Assembly (NCBI RefSeq): GCF_037975245.1
Contig: NC_092570.1
Span: 12,749,001-12,813,000, forward strand
Source: Apostichopus japonicus
Taxonomy: Eukaryota > Echinodermata > Holothuroidea > Aspidochirotida > Stichopodidae
Length of the DNA: 64,000 bases
Direction of reading: 5' to 3'
Position numbers and translations under genes: made by a program. Below are positions 20,002-62,072 of the stretch, one piece after another (the first letter of the stretch is position 1; each line of letters begins with the position of its first letter). Below the pieces are notes generated by a model, which was not told the origin of the DNA, did no database searches, and saw only the letters and a program-made list of their open reading frames with translations.

Positions 20002-21637
20002 AGATGTAGATATATGGATGGATGGATGGATGGATGGATGGATGGATGGATGGATGGATGGATGGATGGATGGATGGATGGATGGATGGATGGATGGATG
20101 GATGGATGGATGGATGGATGGATGGATGGATGGATGGATGGATGGATGGATGGATGGATGGATGGATGGATGGATGGATGGATGGATGGATGGATGGATG
20201 GATGGATGGATGGATGGATGGATGGATGGATGGATGGATGGATGGATGGATGGATGGATGGATGGATGGATGGATGGATGGATGGATGGATGGATGGATG
20301 GATGGATGGATGGATGGATGGATGGATGAATGGATGGATGGATGGATGGATGGATGGATGGATGGATGGATGGATGGATGGATAGATAGATAGATAGATA
20401 GATAGATGGATACAAAGATAAAGGTATAGATATCCTATAGATATAGACTGTTTCAGTGATTGTGCAAACATGGATGTGTGGGAGTGATAAGATAACAATG
20501 ACCAGGGTTCACTGCTATTAAGTAGTGTGAGGTCTTGGCCTTCAAAGAAGTTTGCAGTTTTAATACTATATGGTATGTTGCATATAAGCATTAATATAAT
20601 ATGGATTTGCTTATTAGCAGCTAATTAATTTCTCAATGCAGGGAATTTCCAACATGCGGAAGATATTTGCTTATATAAAACGTGTGATTTTACACCAGTA
20701 CTTCCTCCATGCATTTTCAGCACAATCATGAAGTACCATTTCCCTTCTAGTCTACCCCACCAAGTGTCCTTTATGATTAAAATGAATCGTGAGCATAGAT
20801 GGGTACCCTGTCCACCCACGGCATCCCTTGTTGCTTATAAGTATCCTGTTTCTTTGAAGATAATATTTTACATCCTGTCTTCTTATTCTCTGAATGAGAC
20901 AGCATTCTGTTTCTTCTATTCTACCACCGTAAACCCTACCTCTGCGCACAATCATTATCCACCCCCCCCCCCCCCATCTCTCTGGTACCATAACTAATAT
21001 ACACGCATGCATAGTAACTCACCTTAGTTTCTCGTTCGCTTAGATCAACAATCATATGACTAAGGAGCCTCTTCTTCTTTGAGTGATCTTCCATACAGGA
21101 TTTACAGATAGGGTTGTTGCAATCTTTACAGAACGCCACAGCAGGTGCACCTCCTTCCGAGCATTCTCCGCACTCTTCTTCATGAGTATCGCGTATACTC
21201 AAGCTTTTCATCTGTATTTTATCCTCCATATTTTGGGCGGTGAAATCTGTATTAAGCTTCTCCACGTCGTTGCCAGGGACGTTGGTAGTACGTCTGCATA
21301 GCCCACACGTAATTGCTCCATTGCCTGCCTTCCCTGCCTTTAAGCAAGTCTTGCAGAAACTGTGTCCACAGTTTAATAATTTCTCTTTCGGATTTTCTTT
21401 GCAAATTGCGCAGGTGAGATCTTCTTCAACATCACTTACTTTGAGAACTTTGATGGTGTTATCAATCGACGCCATTGCTAAATCTCTTACAGTTGCAGGA
21501 ATGTGAACGTTTGTACGACGAAGAAAGACAGATAATGATGAATCGACCTCCTCGTCCTGTAGAGACTGTAGTGCAAGGTTGGCTTTGCAGCCAAGGTATT
21601 TCCCGAAAATGACGTATCTTCTAAATACGTGCTTCAT
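19320..21637 (-). CDS. RING-B-box protein fused to a C-terminal ubiquitin-like domain
   Basis: Two-exon model: 21023-21637 and 19320-19571. The first exon ends at a clean donor (AAG|GTGAGT) after exactly 205 codons. The second follows TTCTCAG and is also phase 0, giving 288 residues if the first ATG is used or 234 from the ATG at 21475. The N-terminal part has a C3HC4 RING (C76, C79, C90, H92, C95, C98, C111, C114) and a B-box with Cys pairs 156/159, 170/173, 178/181 and H185, H194. This is the start of a TRIM-type E3 ligase. Where a coiled coil would follow, the next exon encodes a ubiquitin-like domain (residues 207-282) ending RLRGG and then EDDYGC. Ile44, Val70 and Lys63 equivalents are kept; Lys48 is Arg. 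Unseen exons in the 1451-bp intron, or an alternative acceptor 9 bp later, remain possible. Two separate genes is the rival reading. Confidence 0.72.
19684..19755 (-). mobile_element. tRNA-like SINE head in the RING-ubiquitin intron
   Basis: On the - strand AAGCTCAGTGGGTA (A-box-like) is followed by GGTTCCAATCCCGTC (B-box-like), about 50 bp apart, as in a tRNA-derived SINE promoter. The body cannot be delimited because a SINE-B copy adjoins it. Confidence 0.5.
19790..19922 (-). mobile_element. SINE-B copy 2
   Basis: The - strand reads GGCCCGGGTTCGAATCCCGG and then GGAGGCTGGAAGTTTCTTC, with an ACTGTTCTTGATTTTCC body. It shares these blocks with copies at 16.2 and 43.9 kb. It directly abuts the TA repeat. 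Confidence 0.7.
19923..20408 (+). repeat. TA repeat followed by about 90 copies of GGAT
   Basis: Alternating TA to about 19983, then GATATA, then a nearly pure GGAT tetranucleotide tract from about 20013 to 20381 with one interruption (GAATGGAT near 20329), ending in GATA repeats. It lies in the intron between the RING and ubiquitin exons. The repetitive peptides in several frames are artefacts of the repeat. Confidence 0.95.
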
Positions 21638-25504: not shown

Positions 25505-25549
25505 GTCCAGTCATGGAGCTATAAACAGTTTATAGCTCCATGGTCCAGT
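25505..25549. mobile_element. Tiny hairpin insertion 1 with 7-bp direct repeats
   Basis: A perfect palindrome at 25512-25542 has 15-bp arms, CATGGAGCTATAAAC and its complement, around a single A. It is flanked on both sides by GTCCAGT (25505-25511 and 25543-25549). A non-palindromic direct repeat hugging a palindrome is what target-site duplication would leave. No known superfamily has a 31-bp element, so the mobile-element label is inference. Confidence 0.55.
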
Positions 25550-25632
25550 GTGCATTCTATGCCACTTTTAATTGATGAGAAATGACCCTGTAAGGAGCTA
25601 AGGTTAATTAATTCAATTGGCTGGCCTACTTA

Positions 25633-25683
25633 GTCCAACCAGGAAGCTGCTACCAGGCTAAGTAGCAGCCCCCCTGGTCCAAC
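25633..25683. mobile_element. Tiny hairpin insertion 2 with 7-bp direct repeats
   Basis: The 37-bp segment 25640-25676 folds through CAGG/CCTG and GCTGCTAC/GTAGCAGC around the loop CAGGCTAA. GTCCAAC lies on both sides (25633-25639 and 25677-25683). It sits in a looser outer inverted repeat (AATTGGCTG near 25614, CAGCCAATT near 25692), which could instead make it part of a larger foldback. Confidence 0.45.
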
Positions 25684-25689
25684 ACACAC

Positions 25690-26600
25690 TCAGCCAATTA
25701 GATCAGTTCCTCAGATGCAACGCAAACCTTTATGGGAAAACATAATACTTTTATCGCCTCAAATGACATGTTTACACTATCAAGGACAAATTGTGTTCAA
25801 TGTTCTCCAATGTGTTCTGTTGTTAAAATGAAGTTAAGGGAATATATTTTGGATGATAGTAGTAAGTTGAGTCTCGTCTATCCGACATGCTCAGTGATTA
25901 ACCTCCGCCACGTATCACGATCTTGCGCAAGGTTTATTGCTTCCTCGAAATTGTTAATATTAACGTCTTTAAATTGCGACTTTAGGCCTTCCTACTGGTT
26001 TAGCAGTATGTCTCGTGCTTCTCTTGAAGCAACCTTTGCTGGATGATGAGTTATATTAATAATAAAACAAAACAATGGATCAACATTAACGTTTAGACCG
26101 CTGCACTGTGGAGTCGATTTCATCATCAATTTATCCTTAAAGGATCATTCCAGACATTTAGCATTATCTAAAGGTGAATAAACGGAAAAGATGTAAAAAC
26201 GATACCAACACTAAAATCTTTGTTTTTCCTGGACTATGACATATCAATCTGGTAGTACCGGAAGCACATCACGTGACCCTCCGTGCATGTTTTTTTTTCC
26301 TATGGTAGCAAGATTTTCAGATATATGTATATTTCGATGTAAATGAAGAGCACATGAAATACAAAATAAATGGCGCATGTACGCCAAACGCCATGGTCAA
26401 CCAGGAGCACGGAAGATGGACTCTAGATCAGTGATCGGAACTTATATTATGCCTTGGTGTATTCCGAACGACAACTTTCTGTATTTCAATGTTCATCAAC
26501 GACTTAAAAACAAGCATCCTTCATCAACAGTACATTTAAGTTTTCAACATAAGGGCACCCTTTGCAAACAACTTAGGGGCACTTTTTATTTAAAAAACTG
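25690..26600. other. No intact gene; ORF with LINE-like antisense flavour
   Basis: An open frame at 25732-26046 on + has no recognised domain. Its repetitive style (short Ser-rich, CARxIASSKL-like runs) suggests the antisense of a decayed retroelement. Nothing else supported. Confidence 0.3.
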
Positions 26601-26664
26601 CAACCTTCTAAACTTTGTCTTGAAGCTGCTAAAAGAGGTACTGGGTTTTTGGTATGATCAAGAG
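26601..26664 (+). mobile_element. CR1/jockey-like LINE fragment, 5' part
   Basis: The + strand reads CTTGAAGCTGCTAAAAGAGG and on to ATGATCAAGAG, matching the reverse-transcriptase C-terminal region just before the IKRNF motif. Reading continues at 28580 after the inserted hAT element. The 8 bases ATCAAGAG at 26657-26664 are duplicated there. Confidence 0.65.
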
Positions 26665-28579
26665 CAGTGGCGTAGCTAGGATTTTTTGAGTGGGGGGGCC
26701 ATGGGGGGGCTGTTCTTTCTTGTGGGGGGGCCGGGGGTTACTATCTAAGCGGAGCGCCACCTTGGTTGGCGCGGAGCGTACAGAGAAAATTTGAGATTTC
26801 AGCACCCCCCAGATCGCAGGAGATGGCACCTGTGAGGCAAAATAGCAACCAAAAAGATGTGCAACTTTGGTGACAGAAATGCAAAAAAATTTTTTTCTCT
26901 TTCATGCTGACTGGCCTTGCCAACTCAGCCAGACTTTTAACTTGAGGGAAGTTGGCATCATTTGTCGTTTCAAGGTGTCAAGGCCTTTCTCCCAACTCAA
27001 ACCCCTGTGGGCTACCGGTAGGTTTGCAGGATATGCCCACATGTGGACTTAAATAGCATTAGAGGAAGGGGATGGAAGACTAACACGCATCGATGTTTCG
27101 GTAATGGTCCACATTGGTGGCTCGGTGCTAGTTAGGCCATTTATTGGGTTTCTTGAGGCAGCTGTCATCAGAATCTGGGTTTTGTGCCAATCGATGACCG
27201 ATAACATGTATTGGTATGTAAATTTCTTCTTCATATATCTAGCAACACTCTAAAAACAAGTGAGTGGATTTCATTCCATTGGAGTGATCACTCGGCGCAC
27301 TTCAAATTAAGAGTGAAATTTAACTCTATTGGAGTTAACCCTCACTCCTAATATGAGTGAATATAACTCTATTAGGAGTTAAGATTTACTCCAATGGAGT
27401 GGAAATTAACTCTTATACCGGAATGTGCTCAGTGATCAGTGTCTGACTGGTCCAGCCGCGCCTGAACGTAAGACTATCTAAGCGGAGCGCCATCATCGGT
27501 TGGCGCGGAGCGTACAAGAAAATTTTTGGCTTTACAAACCCCCCAGATGGCCGGAAACGGCACTTCCCGAGTATTCTAAGCTGCATGTACCTAGCCTGAA
27601 AATATGGATCTCATGTCTGCAATTTCTCAATTGATGAGAAAAAAACAATCTATGAAATATGGTATTACATATCAGATGAGTTGAGATGATACAAAAATCA
27701 TAATGCCTTTAGCCCCCATTCCCTCCCGTTCCGTCACCACTGTTTGATGCAGGGCCGGATCCAGGATTCTGGAAGGGTGAGGGGTTTGCTCTTGAAAAAT
27801 TCGTTAGCGCATCCTAGCAGCCTACCGCTCTGTAACCTCACCGTCCAAAAAAATTCGAACACCACCTCAATTTTGAAACTTTTCGGTCTGAAAATTGAGA
27901 TTGTTAGGCATTTTTGGCACGAGTAGCACGCGTGCACACTATTCATTTGACAGAAAAGACACACCTGGCTGACTTGTAAGGATAACCGCTTTTCTGACGT
28001 CCTACATGTTTAAAATTGGCGTTTAATTTAATTTTTTCTCTCTTTTTTTCTCTCTCTTTTTTTTTTCTCTTTTTTTTTGGCCAAGAGCAGGGGGGGTCCG
28101 GACCCCCTGGACCCCCCTGGATCCGCGCCTGCATATATTTATTTGACTCGAGGCAATATATGAATACCTGATACCTCGGCTCAGTACAAACGGAGCCAAT
28201 CTTTTGATAGATTGTTGCGCTAGGTGGAAGCACTGAACATATTTTCAGCAGATATCGATATCGCGCAGCACAACAAGGTTCGTGGTGTATGGTCGCAATC
28301 GTCGCATCGACCATTGCCATGCCATGCTGTGTGACCATTCTCATGATTACTACAGATATTGTATTATTCTTATTCTGCCAGATGCAGACGAGAAAATTGT
28401 GTAACTCTATTTCCCAAATTATTGAACAAAAAATATTAGTGAATCGCACTTTTTTTTATTTTTTTTAAATTTTTTTAAATTTTTTTTTACGCCGTTCCCA
28501 GTGGGGGGGCCAGTGGGGGGGCCAGCCGATTTCATGGGGGGGCCTCGGCCCCCCAGGCCCCCCCGTAGCTACGCCACTG
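26665..28579. mobile_element. hAT-type element, 1.9 kb, inserted in a LINE
   Basis: Termini CAGTGGCGTAGCTA and TAGCTACGCCACTG are perfect inverted repeats, flanked by perfect 8-bp duplications ATCAAGAG (26657-26664 and 28580-28587). Inside are two copies of the GC-rich module (about 26735-26780 and 27472-27515, inverted relative to those at the window start), G/C-rich arms near each end, and a further TIR-like pair (CAGGGCCGGATCCAG near 27751, CTGGATCCGCGCCTG near 28119). The second pair suggests one more nested insertion. No transposase frame survives. Confidence 0.85.
27243..27425. repeat. Block of repeated ACTCTATTGGAGT motifs
   Basis: Variants of TTAACTCTATTGGAGTTAA occur about six times in both orientations (CCATTGGAGTGATCACTC, ACTCTATTAGGAGTT, TTACTCCAATGGAGT). 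The stretch is therefore self-complementary at many registers. It sits inside the 26.7-28.6 kb hAT element. Confidence 0.6.
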
Positions 28580-29165
28580 ATCAAGAGGAACTTCAGTTTT
28601 CTGATAGAGGACATCGTAGTTAGGCTTTATAAGCAGTTGGTTAGGCTTCATCTGGAGTATGCAGGCTTGGAACCCATATTTTGCTAAGGATAAGAAAGTA
28701 CTTGAAAAGGTCCAGAGGGGGGCTACTAGGATGATTAGTTCCTTAAAGAGTGTTCCTTATATAATAGGCGGTTACAACTGTTGAATCTCACCGCACTGGA
28801 GCTTAGGAGGTTACGTGGGGACTTGATCAAGGTTTTCAAGATTGTGTATGATTTCGACAATTTATCCTTTACCGAAGTTTTCATGTTTGCTAACAGTAGT
28901 TGTACCAGAGGTTATCCAAAAGTCACATAGTAGGATTAATATTCGGCATAACTTTTTTTCTATTAGGGTTGTAAATGAGTGGAATGATTTGCCTGAGAAA
29001 GTTGTACTTGCTAGTAGTGTCAATGGGTTTAAGAATGCTTTGGACAGGCACTTTAAACATTGTTATCGGGTCTGAGTGTTTGTGTCTTCAGTTTTTTCTC
29101 TCTCTATAGGGTCCTTGATGGGGACTTAAGTGTCCCTCCTGATCCTTTTTTTCTACTAAACTAAA
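28580..29165 (+). pseudogene. CR1/jockey-like LINE, reverse-transcriptase C-terminal remnant
   Basis: Frames here read LVRLHLEYAG, KVLEKVQRGATRMI, LTALELRRLRGDLIKVFKI and VNEWNDLPEKVV, then FKNALDRHF. This is the characteristic region after the catalytic core of CR1/jockey-clade reverse transcriptases. Frameshifts separate the blocks, so it is dead. The 3' end carries CTAAACTAAACTAAAA, a short tandem tail typical of this clade. The 5' continuation is at 26601-26664. Confidence 0.8.
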
Positions 29166-29969
29166 CTAAAACGATATTTTTGTTCTAATTCATGAAATGC
29201 GGATGCGGGTTATATAAACGGGAATGGGAGGGGGAGTGGCACGTGCGCCTCCTCCTGCTCCCTGGTGGTTAAGAAGAAGCTTGTATTCAAATGAGCAGCT
29301 TTCTTATGTTTACAACAGCTTCGCCGAATAGTTCTCTTCCTCATTTGCATGATACTGTTTGCATGATACTGAAAACTTCAGGCTGTGGAAGATGGATGCT
29401 CTCTGAGACGACTTGTATGGTGAATCAACCCGCATTTCGATAACGTCGGAAACAAGTCCTCTGATATGACGTAACAGATTGACTCCTCCAATTTGATTCA
29501 TTCGCGAATCTAATTTCGATTTCCTTTTTTTTTCTAGATGAGTATCATTTAATCTACTGAAAATTAAAATCATACATAAATCAAAAAATATAAATGTAGC
29601 TAAAAGATGAATACATAGCACTGTTCTTATGTGTTGCATTGAGCTTATTTAAAAAATACTTTCTTATAAGTCGACACCATGTTAAAAGAGGTAGGTGAAA
29701 AGATTACTCACATTTTCCGCTGTTCTGTGACGTTATGCAAAACGAGTGTTTTCGTTTGTATGACATAACGTTTAGAGTGTATAGTAAACACGTACTATTT
29801 AATATATGAGCACAGCGTAGATAAGGCCTAGCCTACTTGTCAATATCACTTTCTCACTTGTCTCTGCCTTTCTTTTCATCAAGAGTAACGAACGTCGAAC
29901 ATCAGCAATAGAAACGATCATAAGAAAAAATAAGTATCTTGATCCCGTAGTATTTTCTGTTCCAGAACC
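29166..29969 (+). other. Upstream region of ACADVL
   Basis: Noncoding sequence between the LINE tail and the ACADVL start codon; promoter and 5' UTR are expected here. No TATA box or single dominant element is evident. - strand ORFs (29310-29639, 29799-30020) show no domain. Confidence 0.4.
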
Positions 29970-32900
29970 ATGTTTTCCAGTAAACTGATCAGCGCAGCTC
30001 AATCTCAAGTCGGACAACATGCACGACGTTCCGTCATAAGGTATGTCTACGGTATCGTATACGAATGTTATGTAAGTCTACAGTAATCGTTCAATAATAA
30101 TAATAATATTGAATTGAATCATTTGGCTACTTGGTTTCAAAATAATACCTTAGATAAGACTGTTGCAGCCTAGTTTACTAAATTCGTGGATTATTAATGG
30201 TAGCATTAACAGCACAGACATTCGCCAAGCAGTGGAATACAAATCGTAGCCACCGATTCATGAACTTAAAATTATAGGGCTAAGCTAGGCCTGAGTGGAC
30301 TAGCTGGCTTGCTGATTCACTGGGCATTTTTCCCCTGGCAGTCTTCTGGCTGTGAAACTAAAATCAGTAGATATAGTTTATGAAACTAGATGGTTAGTAT
30401 CTTTTTGTAGCCCTGGCATTACCCAATGCTTTTTTAGAGGTCAAAATGTCACCAAGCAGTGGAATACAAATCGTAGCCACTGATTCATGAACGTTAGGCC
30501 GATGGACCCATATGCCTAGGTGGACTAGCCTACGATAACCTAGGCATACAATAGCCTACATGCTGTATGCCCGATCAATGACAAGGACACTCAGTCTAAT
30601 CATGTGTTATCAGTCTAAAATGTTCAAGCTGGAGTCTCCTTGTGAACTACAGTAAGGCAGCAAGGTTTCCTGCTCTTTGCAAAAATTGTTTTCTTCAATA
30701 CTGTACTGTACTACTACTAGTAAAGTAGTAAGAATAAATGAATCATATACCTGTATAACCAAAATTGCAAGCCTAAGTAGAACAGAAAGTATTGGAGCAA
30801 TTGAATTAACTGGCTTTCAATCAATTGATAACACACACTTAACTATTGACTGGCCCTGTGTAGGAACATATGTATGTGAGAAAAGAATTCCAACGCAAAT
30901 TTTTGCTGATCTTCCAAGACGATCACTTTATTCCTGGACAGCCAGATTTTCCATGGAGCAAATATAGAATACCCCACCAAGCAAAAACAGACCCTCACAT
31001 CGAGTTGCTAATGTCAAGTTATCCAAAATCTTTTGGAAACATTTCCAAGGCCAAAGGTTGGTCAGGTAGTGGCTACATCGGATACTTCGTCAAACACTCT
31101 TGCAGTATTATAAAGACCCCAGTAGTTTCTTCCACCAGTTCAATTTTGAAAATATTTCCAAGTCCAAAAGTCTCCCTGGGAGTGGCTACACCAGCTCAGT
31201 CAGTTATGTCAAGAAGAAGTTGTTAATCTTCATGTACTGTGTGGGCATTGTGTGTACATGTGACAATGTAGTCGGCTACACCATGGATTTACATGTTGGC
31301 AGGGTATTCTATGGTAGCACCTTTCCCATGCCCATCCAAGCTTCCAAGAAGTCATTATGGTTTGCGATGATTTTATTAGCGAATAGATCATCAAGCTGTC
31401 TGAAAATATAACTGTACTCTGTACTCACTGCACACATAACTTTAGCCACAGCTTTGATCAATGTTAACAAATTTTAGGTTAATTTGTACTCTGTAAAGAC
31501 TGATCACAATCCTTAAAGATGGGACATTTTGTCATATTTTCAACACAAAATTTGTATTGATAGCCATCAGTAGCTTTTGCCATATCTGACGTACATACAA
31601 CAGTAATTTGTTAGAGGTTTTAACCGCAGTGGTCACAAGCTTTGGAAAATGTTGATAGGCTATTAGGCACCCAATAGGGCAGAACTGTTAACTTTTGTTT
31701 CTAGAAAAAGTGTGACAAAAAGCCCCAAAATTGTTGGCTTATAATAACAGCTCTAGTCGGGTACACTCAGCATGTAGCATTCTCTCTACAGATAGGACTG
31801 TAACAGTGTGCAGCAGTTCATGAAAGTAACTAATAAAGTCTACACTCTACAGTACTAAGATTCAACAATGTTTACAACCAATCGCAGGGGAAGGAGTTTT
31901 GCATGAGACCCAACAAGCACTGCCTGTTCTAAACAGAATTTAAGCAATCATTAAGTGTTGGCTCATCAGTCATGCAGTTGTAAGGTTTGTAAGACCATGG
32001 AGGTCTGTTTTTACCTCCATGGTAAGACTAGGTCACAGCAGTATCGGTTAAGGTGGAAACATCCAGTCGGAGGGGACGCAGCCGGCTTTTCACAAATGTA
32101 CATGTCTCAGCCATCCATATCGACAATATAAATCAGATTAATCCCCTACAACTTGTTTCATGCCTTTGTCAAGGTGCTTTTCACATTTTTAGATTATTAC
32201 GTGAGGCGTAGAGGATTGCTTTGTCACATATTGAAAAGTTATTTTACTGATAGACTATTTGCTTAGTGTATATTGGGTCTTACAGTCGGTACTATGACAG
32301 GTGAAAGGTTGTCCTGTACTGTAAAATGCATTGTCATGTACAGCACAGTACAGTATGTACACTGTCTGTAAGCATCATTAATTTCTGAAACCACTCATGT
32401 TGACATTGCTTCGAGAGTCCAACGATTGGGATTTTGCCAATGATTCACTTATTTCTGTTTGGAATGCACTTTATGTAGATATGATTCATGGTGATAGTTC
32501 TGTACCATACTACAAACTGTGGTTACCTAGTAGCCTACAGAGGAATCAAGGCTTGAGAACTTTGACCAACTGCTTATGCATATATTGTATATGGTTTAGT
32601 GGCACTATTCGTGCTCATTTGCATGCAATTTTGGATGCCTTGCTTCTGTACCTGTGTACAGCGCATTATTTGTTTCGGTAAGGTAATTATAGATAAGTCC
32701 TGCTAACTAGTAACTTGGAAATTTATGTACTTCCAAAAAATGTTGGCAAGATTTTAAATTATCACAGTACTTAAAAACTACAAGTATATATAACAAGAAT
32801 TCTCAGTTGATTGCAAGATATCATACATGTAAATGATGACACTAGAATTATTAACTAAAAATAAATCATCACTTTCTTACTGTTGATAACCATCACATGA

Positions 32901-44900: not shown

Positions 44901-47900
44901 ACTTAACATGACGTCAGATCCATGAAGAAAAGTCATCGAAACCATAATGGATTTTGCATTCTGGTTATTGTTCCACTCATAATTTAAAGCAAAAACAAAA
45001 AACGATTTTGTTCCTAATTTTTCTCAAAAGGAAAGAAGGATCTTTGAAATAAAATGGAAGTCCTCAAATGTTTTTTCCTCACATTAGATCTCACAAATAG
45101 TGCAGTCATCTGTTATTTCAGATCATCAGAAATTCAACCCCGAATCTCGCCTGAACATTTTAAGCATTTGATGAAAAAATATTAAGTATTTTATTATCCA
45201 TTTCAGAGTGCTGGCATGGAGAGAGTCATGAGAGATTTGAGAATCTTCAGAATCTTTGAAGGAACCAACGATATCCTGAGATTATTTATAGCACTGACTG
45301 GCATGCAGGTAGGGGAGAATTTAACCATCTCAACCATTATCAGTAATGTTGCAAAGCTGCTGGTTTTTACTTATTTTCTATTCCTCATTGTCCTTAGGGA
45401 GAATTTTTTTTTTGGGGGGGAGTGAGGCAAATACTCCAAGCTTGTTGTTGGATAACGTAAGTGTATGATAATTGTTCGTTAATCTTATGATATAAGATTT
45501 GATATGTAACATTTAATTTGTGATGATTAAATGTAACATGAATGCATGATGTAAAGTACATTTACTAAAAGTATGGTATCTGTAAATCAAGTTGTTGATA
45601 CATGGTACCTGATGAGAGGCAGGGGATGTTTTAGTTGAGAACTAAATGCATGGTAATATACAGTCAAGCAGTATTTATACAGTAGTTGATGAGGGGCAGG
45701 GGATGTTTTAGTTGAGAACTAAATGCATGGTAACATACAGTCAAGCAGTATTTATACAGTAGTTGATGAGAGGCAGGGGATGTTTTAGTTGAGAACTAAA
45801 TGCATGGTAATATACAGTCAAGCAGTATTTATGCAGTAGTTGATGAGAGGCAGGGGATGTTTTAGTTGAGAACTAAATGCATGGTAACATACAGTCAAGC
45901 AGTATTTATACAGTAGTTGATGAGAGGCAGGGGATGTTTTAGTTGAGAACTAAATGCATGGTAATATACAGTCAAGCAGTATTTATACAGTAGTTGATGA
46001 GGGGCAGGGGATGTTTTAGTTGAGAACTAAATGCATGGTAACATACAGTCAAGTAGTATTTATACAGTAGTTGATGAGAGGCAGGGGATGTTTTAGTTGA
46101 GAACTAAATGCATGGTAATATACAGTCAAGCAGTATTTATACAGTAGTTGATGAGAGGCAGGGGATGTTTTAGTTGAGAACTAAATGCATGGTAATATAC
46201 AGTCAAGCAGTATTTATACAGTAGTTGATGAGGGGCAGGGGATGTTTTAGTTGAGAACTAAATGCATGGTAACATACAGTCAAGCAGTATTTATACAGTA
46301 GTTGATGAGAGGCAGGGGATGTTTTAGTTGAGAACTAAATGCATGGTAATATACAGTCAAGCAGTATTTATACAGTAGTTGATGAGGGGCAGGGGATGTT
46401 TTAGTTGAGAACTAAATGCATGGTAACATACAGTCAAGTAGTATTTATACAGTAGTTGATGAGAGGCAGGGGATGTTTTAGTTGAGAACTAAATGCATGG
46501 TAATATACAGTCAAGCAGTATTTATACAGTAGTTGATGAGAGGCAGGGGATGTTTTAGTTGAGAACTAAATGCATGGTAATATACAGTCAAGCAGTATTT
46601 ATACAGTAGTTGATGAGGGGCAGGGGATGTTTTAGTTGAGAACTAAATGCATGGTAACATACAGTCAAGTAGTATTTATACAGTAGTTGATGAGAGGCAG
46701 GGGATGTTTTAGTTGAGAAGTAAATGCATGGTAATATACAGTCAAGCAGTATTTATACAGTAGTTGATGAGAGGCAGGGGATGTTTTAGTTGAGAACTAA
46801 ATGCATGGTAATATACAGTCAAGCAGTATTTATACAGTAGTTGATGAGAGGCAGGGGATGTTTTAGTTGAGAACTAAATGCATGGTAATATACAGTCAAG
46901 CAGTATTTATACAGTAGTTGATGAGGGGCAGGGGATGTTTTAGTTGAGAACTAAATGCATGGTAACATACAGTCAAGTAGTATTTATACAGTAGTTGATG
47001 AGAGGCAGGGGATGTTTTAGTTGAGAACTAAATGCATGGTAATATACAGTCAAGCAGTATTTATACAGTAGTTGATGAGAGGCAGGGGATGTTTTAGTTG
47101 AGAACTAAATGCATGGTAATATACAGTCAAGCAGTATTTATACAGTAGTTGATGAGAGGCAGGGGATGTTTTAGTTGAGAACTAAATGCATGGTAACATA
47201 CAGTCAAGTAGTATTTATACAGTAGTTGATGAGAGGCAGGGGATGTTTTAGTTGAGAACTAAATGCATGGTAATATACAGTCAAGCAGTATTTATACAGT
47301 AGTTGATGAGAGGCAGGGGATGTTTTAGTTGAGAACTAAATGCACGGTAATATACAGTCAAGCAGTATTTATACAGTAGTTGATGAGAGGCAGGGGATGT
47401 TTTAGTTGAGAACTAAATGCACGGTAACATACAGTCAAGGGATACCTCTCATAAAGTAATATCAAGCTTCCACATCGTATGGTGATACTTACATGAAGTA
47501 TGAAATTGTCCGGCTACTGCAACATGTTCACTTCAATTAATTTCTTCCTTCACAGAATGCTGGAAAGCAGCTTCAGGGACTGCAAAGAGCCCTTAAAAAC
47601 CCATCAGCAAATCTTGGTGTTATCATGGAAGAGGCAAATAAGAGGGCCAAAAGGTAAGGCTGCTAAATAGGGTGTTGTTGCTGTTATGGGTAGTTGTTTA
47701 GTACAATTATCCCTCTCATATCAACCAACGATCATGGTTGGGTTGTGTCTCCCGTTAAGGCTAAAAAGTGGTCACATGACTGCTATTTTGTCTGACTTGT
47801 TTCTTCTTGAAATCATGGTAAAAGTTCATTACATTCATAGAGAATTCATTGTCAGTATTGGTCAAAGAATTACACATTTCAACAGCATCTGCAAAACAGC

Positions 47901-61339: not shown

Positions 61340-62072
61340 CGTATAGGAAAAGGAGGGACAAGAGGGATAGGAGGAATAGGAGGGAAAGGAAGGATAGGAG
61401 GGATAGGGGGATATGAGGGATAGGAGGGATAGGAGGAATAGGAGGGATAGGAGGGATAGGAAGGATAGGAGGGATTGGAGGAATAGGAGGGAAAGAAAGG
61501 AGAGATATACAGGAGGGATAGGAGGGATAAGAGGGATAGGAGGGATAGGAGGGATTGGAGGGATAGGAGGGATAGGAGGATAGTAGGGATAGGAGGGATA
61601 TGAGGAATAGGAGGGATAGGAGGGATAGGAGGGATTGGAGGGATAGGAAGGATATGGGGATAGGAGGGATAGGTGGCTAGAGGGATAGGAGGGATAGGAA
61701 GGATAGGAGGGATAGGAGGGAAAGGAAGGATGGGAGGGATAGGAGGAATAGCAGGGATAGGAGGGATAAGAGGGATAGAAGGGATTAGAGGGATAGGAAG
61801 GATAGGAGGGATAGGAGGGATAGGAATGATAGGGGGTAGGAGGAATAGGAGAAATAGAAGGGATAGGAGGGATAGTATGGATAGGAGGGATAGGAGGAGT
61901 AGGAAGGATAAGAGGGATTGGAGGGATAGGAAAGATAGGAGGGATAGGAAGGATAGGAGGGATAGGAGGGATAGGAGAGATAGGAGGGATAGGAGGGATA
62001 GGAGGGATAGGAAGGATAGGAGGGATAGGACGGATAGGGGGGATAGGAGGGATAAGAGATAGGAGGGATAGA
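61340..62072 (+). repeat. Ten-bp minisatellite GGGATAGGAG
   Basis: About 70 imperfect copies of GGGATAGGAG with AAGG, ATGAG and GAATAG variants. The translated Ser-Tyr-Pro or Leu-rich frames are by-products. It lies just upstream (- strand sense) of the LAMP gene. Confidence 0.95.

What the first reader, a model, noticed from the sequence alone, without database searches (positions are those of the whole stretch)
25505..32028. Three ultra-short hairpins, each flanked by a perfect 7-bp direct repeat
At 25512-25542, 25640-25676 and 31996-32021, hairpins of 31, 37 and 26 bp begin CA and end TG. They are bracketed by GTCCAGT, GTCCAAC and GTAAGAC respectively, each present exactly on both sides. 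Two share the ends CATGGAG/CTCCATG. Two of the three targets read GTNNNAC and all start GT. Fixed-length duplications around palindromes point to a transposition or templated-insertion process making insertions far smaller than any standard MITE.
Basis: partly seen in the sequence, partly recalled or inferred. Interest (0 to 1): 0.87.

Follow-up and report, generated by a model that had tools for sequence, protein, structure and literature searches.

The report
Excision scars of P-like transposons
The tiny hairpins are not miniature jumping genes but scars left when larger P-element-like transposons were cut out and the break was resealed; this sea-cucumber-like genome appears to keep well over a thousand of them, a natural record of how animal cells repair DNA breaks.

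Summary
The window holds three CA..TG hairpins flanked by 7-bp direct repeats, at the stated places. Shuffles give 0.36 on average and at most 2 in 100.

The interpretation needs turning round. The repeats are target-site duplications, but the hairpins are what is left after a larger transposon excised. P transposase cuts 17 nt inside each end, so both flanks keep a 3' tail. End joining of the two tails gives a palindrome between two duplications, as seen in Drosophila.

Evidence from the host genome:
- CATGGAG..CTCCATG at 19-44 bp: 1,752 places against 52 for the control; at 45-74 bp 165 against 51.
- 43 of 49 fetched places carry 7-bp repeats with at most one mismatch.
- The target is a two-sided 15-bp motif around GTNNNAC.
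- Retained end sequence typically stops at base 17-18.
- One uncut 1,401-bp element with such ends and 7-bp duplications exists.

No autonomous copy of the family was found, and hairpin 2's family could not be searched. P-superfamily membership is likely but not proven.

The parts
25505..25511 (.). Scar 1, left copy of 7-bp target duplication GTCCAGT
25512..25528 (+). Scar 1, retained 17 nt of one transposon end, CATGGAGCTATAAACAG (base 17, G, shared with the other stub)
   Evidence: same 17-mer family at 631+641 genome hits against 2+1 control; assignment
25528..25542 (-). Scar 1, retained 15 nt of the other transposon end, joined with a 1-nt overlap
   Evidence: row win1: 31 bp, 17 and 15 nt, overlap 1
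25543..25549 (.). Scar 1, right copy of 7-bp target duplication GTCCAGT
25633..25639 (.). Scar 2, left copy of 7-bp target duplication GTCCAAC
25640..25676 (.). Scar 2, imperfect 37-bp palindrome; readable as two 17-nt stubs (CAGGAAGCTGCTACCAG and, inverted, CAGGGGGGCTGCTACTT) with GCT between them; a different end family, CAGG
   Evidence: target motif fits on both sides, CTTA|GTCCAAC|ACAC; genome-wide search did not complete
25677..25683 (.). Scar 2, right copy of 7-bp target duplication GTCCAAC
31989..31995 (.). Scar 3, left copy of 7-bp target duplication GTAAGAC
31996..32004 (+). Scar 3, retained 9 nt of one transposon end, CATGGAGGT (last T shared with the other stub)
   Evidence: row win3
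32004..32021 (-). Scar 3, retained 18 nt of the other transposon end (read inverted, CATGGAGGTAAAAACAGA)
   Evidence: row win3: 26 bp, 18 and 9 nt, overlap 1; 17-mer
32022..32028 (.). Scar 3, right copy of 7-bp target duplication GTAAGAC

Best explanation
Each hairpin is an excision scar of a P-superfamily-like DNA transposon. (1) The element inserted at a palindromic site of the form STTN-GTNNNAC-NAAS and duplicated the central 7 bp (shown by the repeats and the motif). (2) The transposase later cut it out with a long stagger, about 18 nt inside each end, leaving a single-stranded 3' tail on each flank (inferred from where retained end sequence stops). (3) The two similar, non-complementary tails were end-joined: often one tail stays nearly whole, its last base pairs with a single base inside the other tail, and fill-in copies that tail, giving a palindrome of about 19-38 bp between both 7-bp duplications (inferred; most of the joins examined fit base by base). 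Scars 1 and 3 come from one family with ends CATGGAG[C/G]TA[T/A]AAACAGA. Scar 2 probably comes from a related family with CAGG ends.
For: Window: three hairpins with exact 7-bp repeats, 3 against 0.36 expected. Genome: 17-mer CATGGAGNTANAAACAG 631+641 hits against 2+1 for the reversed pattern; CATGGAG..CTCCATG of 19-44 bp 1,752 places against 52, of 45-74 bp 165 against 51. Of the first 50 listed places (49 stretches, all on C1), 30 have an exact and 13 a one-mismatch 7-bp repeat; flanks swapped between sites match exactly in 0.3%. Target motif two-sided: T at -3 in 35, A at +3 in 36, both in 29 of 43, the same layout as Galileo's 15-bp motif around a 7-bp duplication. Of the first 65 listed 17-mer hits, 36 are two-tail scars with the 7-bp repeat and 9 one-tail scars with both repeats; base 18 is A in 49. 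25 of 48 assigned joins share exactly one base where random joins would give 19-24%. An uncut 1,401-bp element between GTTGGAC repeats has CATGGAG ends with A at base 18 of its left end. Drosophila P excision junctions have the same make-up. The genome codes P-type transposases.
Against: No autonomous element with CATGGAG ends was found. The protein remnant in the uncut element has no Pfam match and only weak similarity to P-type C-termini (E 0.005 in a single comparison; E 0.01 in a profile search). The P-type transposase loci fetched show no convincing ends with 7- or 8-bp repeats in the 4-6 kb held. Six of 49 palindromes lack a 7-bp repeat with at most one mismatch, and 20 of 65 17-mer hits have none within 60 bp. 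A 48-bp place at C2:26113244 keeps about 24 nt of an end, beyond base 18, so not all remnants stop at 18. Base 18 is T in 15 and G in 1 of 65, and in 4 one-tail scars the A is also the first base of the repeat. The full GT..AC form is present on both sides in only 13 of 43 sites. The end variant of the uncut element's right side (CATGGAGGTATAAACTTA) is not the one the scars were searched with. Hairpin 2 rests on one site.
Confidence: 0.88

Rival explanations
1. Excision scars, but of a transposon that is not of the P superfamily: another transposase with a long stagger and a 7-bp duplication made them.
For: No P transposase could be tied to the CATGGAG ends; the protein remnant in the uncut element is only weakly P-like.
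Against: 7-bp duplication GTNNNAC inside a 15-bp palindromic motif as in Galileo; ends CAT.. as in Drosophila P and zebrafish Pdre2; the 17-nt stagger is called unusually long and atypical in the P review (passages); the best non-self match of the P C-terminal profile among the segments tested is this element.
Confidence: 0.07
2. Ultra-short mobile elements (micro-MITEs): the 20-37 bp hairpins themselves are inserted by a transposase and duplicate 7 bp.
For: Identical hairpins recur beside different 7-mers, for example CATGGAGGTAAAAACAGACCTCCATG at L002, L005, L009, L068, L099 and L104, as copies of one mobile unit would.
Against: A continuous series of joins of two stubs, with one-base overlaps or filler; one-tail scars between two repeats and joins running into other DNA; number falls sharply beyond two tail lengths; recurrence is explained by the last tail base pairing with the few fitting bases of the other tail. 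With an 18-nt cut inside each end a 26-bp unit could not be released as a duplex (inference).
Confidence: 0.04
3. Templated inverted insertions at ordinary breaks, or chance, without any transposon.
For: Short inverted templated insertions at breaks are known from yeast (PMC11724301, start of abstract in the listing).
Against: Fixed 7-bp repeats, one end sequence at over a thousand places and a target motif are not predicted; shuffles fail.
Confidence: 0.01

Closest known systems
Drosophila P element excision junctions (P{wa}; PMC2895639, section 7 with Table 1 read)
   Same: Target duplication on both sides, two partial copies of the element end joined tail to tail, short overlaps, filler, deletions; tail sequence begins CATG.
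   Different: 8-bp duplication and 17-nt tails, from a laboratory assay at one locus; here 7-bp, apparently 18-nt, and old scars at well over a thousand natural places.
Galileo (P superfamily; PMC4168063, passages)
   Same: Mostly 7-bp duplication of GT..AC form (GTATTAC, GTANTAC) inside a 15-bp palindromic target motif with 4 bp on each side.
   Different: Galileo has long foldback terminal repeats and is described as present copies; no scars are described in the passages seen. The flanking motif differs (AANGT/ACNTT there, STTN/NAAS here).
Zebrafish Pdre2 and THAP9 (PMC10983969, passages)
   Same: Short terminal repeats beginning CAT (CATACCTGTCAAC, 13 bp); a P-like element of a deuterostome animal.
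   Different: 8-bp duplication; at least 50 P-homologous sequences in the genome; no natural scar family is described in the passages seen.
THAP9-like genes of the sea cucumber Holothuria glaberrima (PMC13228809, passages)
   Same: P-type transposase genes in a sea cucumber, as in the window's genome.
   Different: Described as genes; no terminal repeats, mobile copies or scars in the passages seen.

Membership tests
P superfamily of DNA transposons | target-site duplication of 7-8 bp | tested here: met
   7 bp in 43 of 49 stretches with at most one mismatch, 30 exact; adjacent exact repeats were 0, 1, 2 or 7 bp, never 6 or 8
P superfamily of DNA transposons | palindromic target motif extending beyond the duplication | tested here: met
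   70 distinct contexts pooled over strands; unpooled T at -3 and A at +3 together in 29 of 43; compare
P superfamily of DNA transposons | short terminal inverted repeats beginning CA | tested here: met
   uncut element CATGGAGCTATAAAC.. and, inverted, CATGGAGGTATAAAC..; compare
P superfamily of DNA transposons | long staggered cut inside the ends (17 nt in Drosophila) leaving end stubs in the donor site | tested here: inconclusive
   stubs present and typically stopping at base 17-18; the strand cuts themselves were not observed, and the value of 18 is inferred
P superfamily of DNA transposons | element codes a transposase with THAP, HTH, RNase H and GTP-binding insertion domains | tested here: inconclusive
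   uncut element carries only broken frames; no Pfam match, weak match to P-type C-termini; intact P-type frames exist elsewhere in the genome without matching ends found
MITE | the hairpin itself transposes as a unit | tested here: inconclusive
   size limit, graded joins, one-tail and deletion scars speak against it; mobility itself and empty alleles could not be tested

The most novel reading that the evidence does not exclude
A P-like family with an 18-nt stagger was removed from most of its sites in an echinoderm germline, by a burst of excision or a regular removal process, so that it survives mainly as well over a thousand scars. These record a specific repair rule: the last 3' base of one tail pairs with a single base of the other tail and primes fill-in.
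Probability: 0.3. Interest if true: 0.8.

Novelty: new variant of a known kind. Interest (0 to 1): 0.64.

Why it matters
P-element excision products are known from laboratory assays such as the one read here. Here one animal genome appears to hold well over a thousand natural break repairs with nearly identical, defined ends, so germline end-joining preferences (overlap length, trimming, filler, deletion) could be read directly and compared between species. It also suggests that a transposon family can have been very active yet be present today mostly as stubs too short for ordinary repeat annotation, and gives a simple search rule (7-bp repeat, two stubs of up to 18 nt, GTNNNAC target) for finding such lost families elsewhere.

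Tried and rejected
Micro-MITE, chance and ordinary templated insertion are weighed under rivals. An apparent excess of 6-bp-flanked hairpins in the window plus 20 fetched loci (12 against 2.0 expected) was traced: 6 of the 12 are 7-bp scars read one register in (CCATGG pairs), 4 lie in two tandem or AT-rich stretches, 2 are single cases not followed. (no low-complexity filter) and the arm-4 rows (faulty filter) were discarded. The loci around four of the 12 P-type matches (L109, L112, L113, L114) were scanned for CA..TG ends with 7- or 8-bp repeats and nothing convincing was found in the 4-6 kb held (L109 also); longer elements would be missed. A scan of the window for long elements with CA/TG ends and exact 7-bp repeats gave 6 pairs with at most 8 of 10 end bases alike, none with CATGGAG ends, taken as chance without a shuffle control. 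Literature searches bearing on P elements in sea cucumbers or natural P excision scars listed no report of such scars by title or abstract start; only the open-access library was searched and six papers were opened in part.

Could not be done: the genome count of hairpin 2's family (asked 9 times), of uncut left ends (3 times), family PF21787 (4 times) and a search of the genome with the protein remnant of the uncut element (16 times) did not complete, the machine being busy. No relatives of this genome are held, so empty sites in other individuals or species were not looked for.
Full report
What is there. The window is eukaryotic DNA. A PID-domain reading frame at 12304-13275 matches a Holothuria leucospilota protein at 71% and two unnamed proteins at 99% and 81%, so the host is most likely a sea cucumber; its name is not given. 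In the window 7 is the only repeat length with an excess: 3 against a shuffle mean of 0.36 and a maximum of 2 in 100.

The clue. Written from its outer end, hairpin 1 contains the 17-mer CATGGAGCTATAAACAG followed by a shorter copy in reverse. Hairpin 3 contains a 9-mer followed by the reverse of CATGGAGGTAAAAACAG. The two 17-mers agree at 15 of 17 bases. A hairpin made of one nearly complete stub and one trimmed stub is what P-element excision leaves in Drosophila. There the transposase cuts 17 nt inside the end (PMC7776569, passages), and many of the sequenced junctions carry both 8-bp duplications around two partial 17-nt tails with short overlaps or filler, while others lose more (PMC2895639, section 7 with Table 1).

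Genome-wide test. The merged 17-mer CATGGAGNTANAAACAG occurs 631+641 times in the host genome (671.6 Mb); the reversed pattern occurs 2+1 times. The palindromic pattern CATGGAG..CTCCATG of 19-44 bp has 1,752 matches against 52 for the control. At 45-74 bp it falls to 165 against 51, and many of those listed are pairs of scars, one tandem array or copies of one repeat. A limit near twice the tail length is predicted by the scar model. The counts include copies of scars carried inside other repeats.

Target duplications. One search lists its first 50 places, all on contig C1; one lies inside another, so I fetched 49 stretches. The listing is capped, so the last part of C1 and the other contigs were not sampled this way. 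Thirty stretches have an exact 7-bp repeat, 13 differ at one base, and 6 differ at two or more (L072 and L074 at two, L037 and its copy L073, L069, L064). No stretch has an adjacent exact repeat of 6 or 8 bp. Swapping flanks between sites gives an exact match in 0.3% of pairs. The consensus of the repeats is GTNNNAC, though GT and AC stand together at only 13 of 43 sites. Outside the repeats, T at -3 and A at +3 each reach 80% over 70 distinct contexts pooled over both strands. Unpooled, T at -3 is present in 35, A at +3 in 36 and both in 29 of 43. So the target is a two-sided motif of 15 bp, the layout reported for Galileo (7-bp GTANTAC or GTATTAC inside a 15-bp palindrome; PMC4168063, passages). 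The window's three sites share the T at -3, and hairpin 2 has both T at -3 and A at +3 (CTTA|GTCCAAC|ACAC); hairpins 1 and 3 lack the A at +3. In the 43 sites the two repeat copies differ at 13 of 301 positions. I infer that many are old germline scars and not excisions in the sequenced tissue.

Anatomy of the joins. I examined the first 65 hits listed (63 sites, two palindromes being hit from both strands). Thirty-six hits are two-tail scars with a 7-bp repeat (28 exact, 8 with one mismatch). Nine are classed as one-tail scars with both repeats; of these L091 (48 bp, one mismatch) may be chance and L082 keeps a mutated part of a second arm. Twenty show no repeat within 60 bp. Of those 20, L094 is the uncut element and L106 a partial copy of it. 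Five (L007 and its copy L073, L013, L028, L097) keep part of a second arm but no matching 7-mer. The other 13 run from the end sequence into other DNA, as after a deletion into the flank; L020 and L085 are copies of each other. For eight of the 20 only 107-137 bp were fetched, so a distant partner was not excluded there; for ten others none was found in up to 5 kb. The base after the 17-mer is A in 49, T in 15 and G in 1; among the 30 hits without a second arm of three or more matching bases it is A in 25, T in 4 and G in 1. In four of those 25 the A is also the first base of the repeat. The left end of the uncut element has A there too. I therefore read the tail as 18 nt, one longer than in Drosophila. 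This is an inference from joins; a 48-bp place on C2 that keeps about 24 nt is an exception.

Repair rule. Fitting 51 palindromes (the 49 stretches plus hairpins 1 and 3) to three tail variants assigned 48. Of these, 25 have exactly one shared base at the join, 5 none, 2 two, 1 four, and 15 have filler; three were unassigned. Some 'filler' cases probably belong to a further end variant (CATGGAGCTATTAC..). Uniform random joins of the two main tails would give one shared base in 19-24%, against 25 of the 33 without filler. Several sites are copies of one another, so the events are fewer than the sites and no P value is given. The common products are those expected if the last 3' A pairs with a T inside the opposite tail (20, 26 and 28 bp) or G17 with C15 (31 bp), followed by fill-in. 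This would explain why identical hairpins recur beside different 7-mers.

The uncut element. At G000:C2:4606270-4607670 lies a 1,401-bp element between two copies of GTTGGAC, with ends CATGGAGCTATAAACAGAAGGAG and, inverted, CATGGAGGTATAAACTTACTC. A second place on C2 shares the left end and stretches at 92.6-95.6% identity; the similarity starts at the 7-mer, which there reads GTTGAAT, and no right end was found in the 3.2 kb held. The reading frames of the element are broken. Its pieces have no Pfam match. One piece resembles the C-terminus of a P-type transposase of this genome weakly (28% over 86 positions, E 0.005 for the single comparison) and is the best match outside the model sequences for a profile of four such C-termini (E 0.01 among 8,023 real and as many shuffled segments; the best shuffle scores 0.26). 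The genome has 12 matches to Tnp_P_element, against none in 14 control genomes. One 764-aa frame carries the HTH, both RNase H parts and the GTP-binding insertion and matches the solved Drosophila P transposase at 3.3e-26. None of the four P-type loci fetched shows convincing ends with 7- or 8-bp repeats. A Holothuria glaberrima genome preprint reports three THAP9-like genes with the P transposase domain (PMC13228809, passages).

Scars against whole elements. Among the 65 hits, 45 are classed as scars with both repeats, against one whole and one partial element. This ratio counts only copies that match the 17-mer; whole elements with other end variants would be missed, and the genome-wide count did not complete.

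Verdict. These are most likely old excision scars of a P-like family. Membership in the P superfamily rests on duplication length, target motif, end type and the inferred long stagger; the defining transposase could not be tied to the family here. Hairpin 2 is assigned to a related family on its repeat, target motif and size only. A mixed scar, L100 (one CATGGAG end, one CAGGGAG end), and a CAGGGAG scar in L012 suggest several related families.

Noticed in passing
G000:C6:995808-996232 (listing): A tandem array in which 25-29-bp scars alternate with a 7-mer that reads GTATGAG or its reverse complement CTCATAC: a satellite apparently grown from an excision scar.
   Followed up: no
L100 (G000:C2:8277139) and L012:9153-9180: A scar with one CATGGAG end and one CAGGGAG end (37 bp, GTACAAC repeats), and a scar with two CAGGGAG ends (28 bp, GTAGAAC repeats): related end families, perhaps linked to hairpin 2.
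   Followed up: partly
L109:1327-3621, minus strand (G000:C17): A 764-aa open frame with all four P-transposase domains except THAP in the frame shown, match to Drosophila P transposase 6p5a at 3.3e-26; no terminal repeats identified in 6 kb.
   Followed up: partly
G000:C1:13930189-13930260, C1:14856650-14856721, C2:5424778-5424849, C2:26932982-26933053 and others: A scar lying inside a dispersed repeat, copied with it; such scars inflate site counts and could date the repeat.
   Followed up: no
G000:C2:26113244-26113291: A 48-bp remnant that keeps about 24 nt of a left end, past base 18, perhaps repair synthesis that was broken off or an internal deletion.
   Followed up: no
G000:C5:2208867-2208929 and C2:31519332-31519394: Two scars side by side with one 7-mer between them, as if a second element had used the duplicated target next to an older scar.
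   Followed up: no
window 45610-47439; 61351-62071; 20014-20411: Large tandem arrays: a 77-bp unit with about 24 copies at 97% matches, a 9-bp unit with about 81 copies, an ATGG array of about 100 copies.
   Followed up: no
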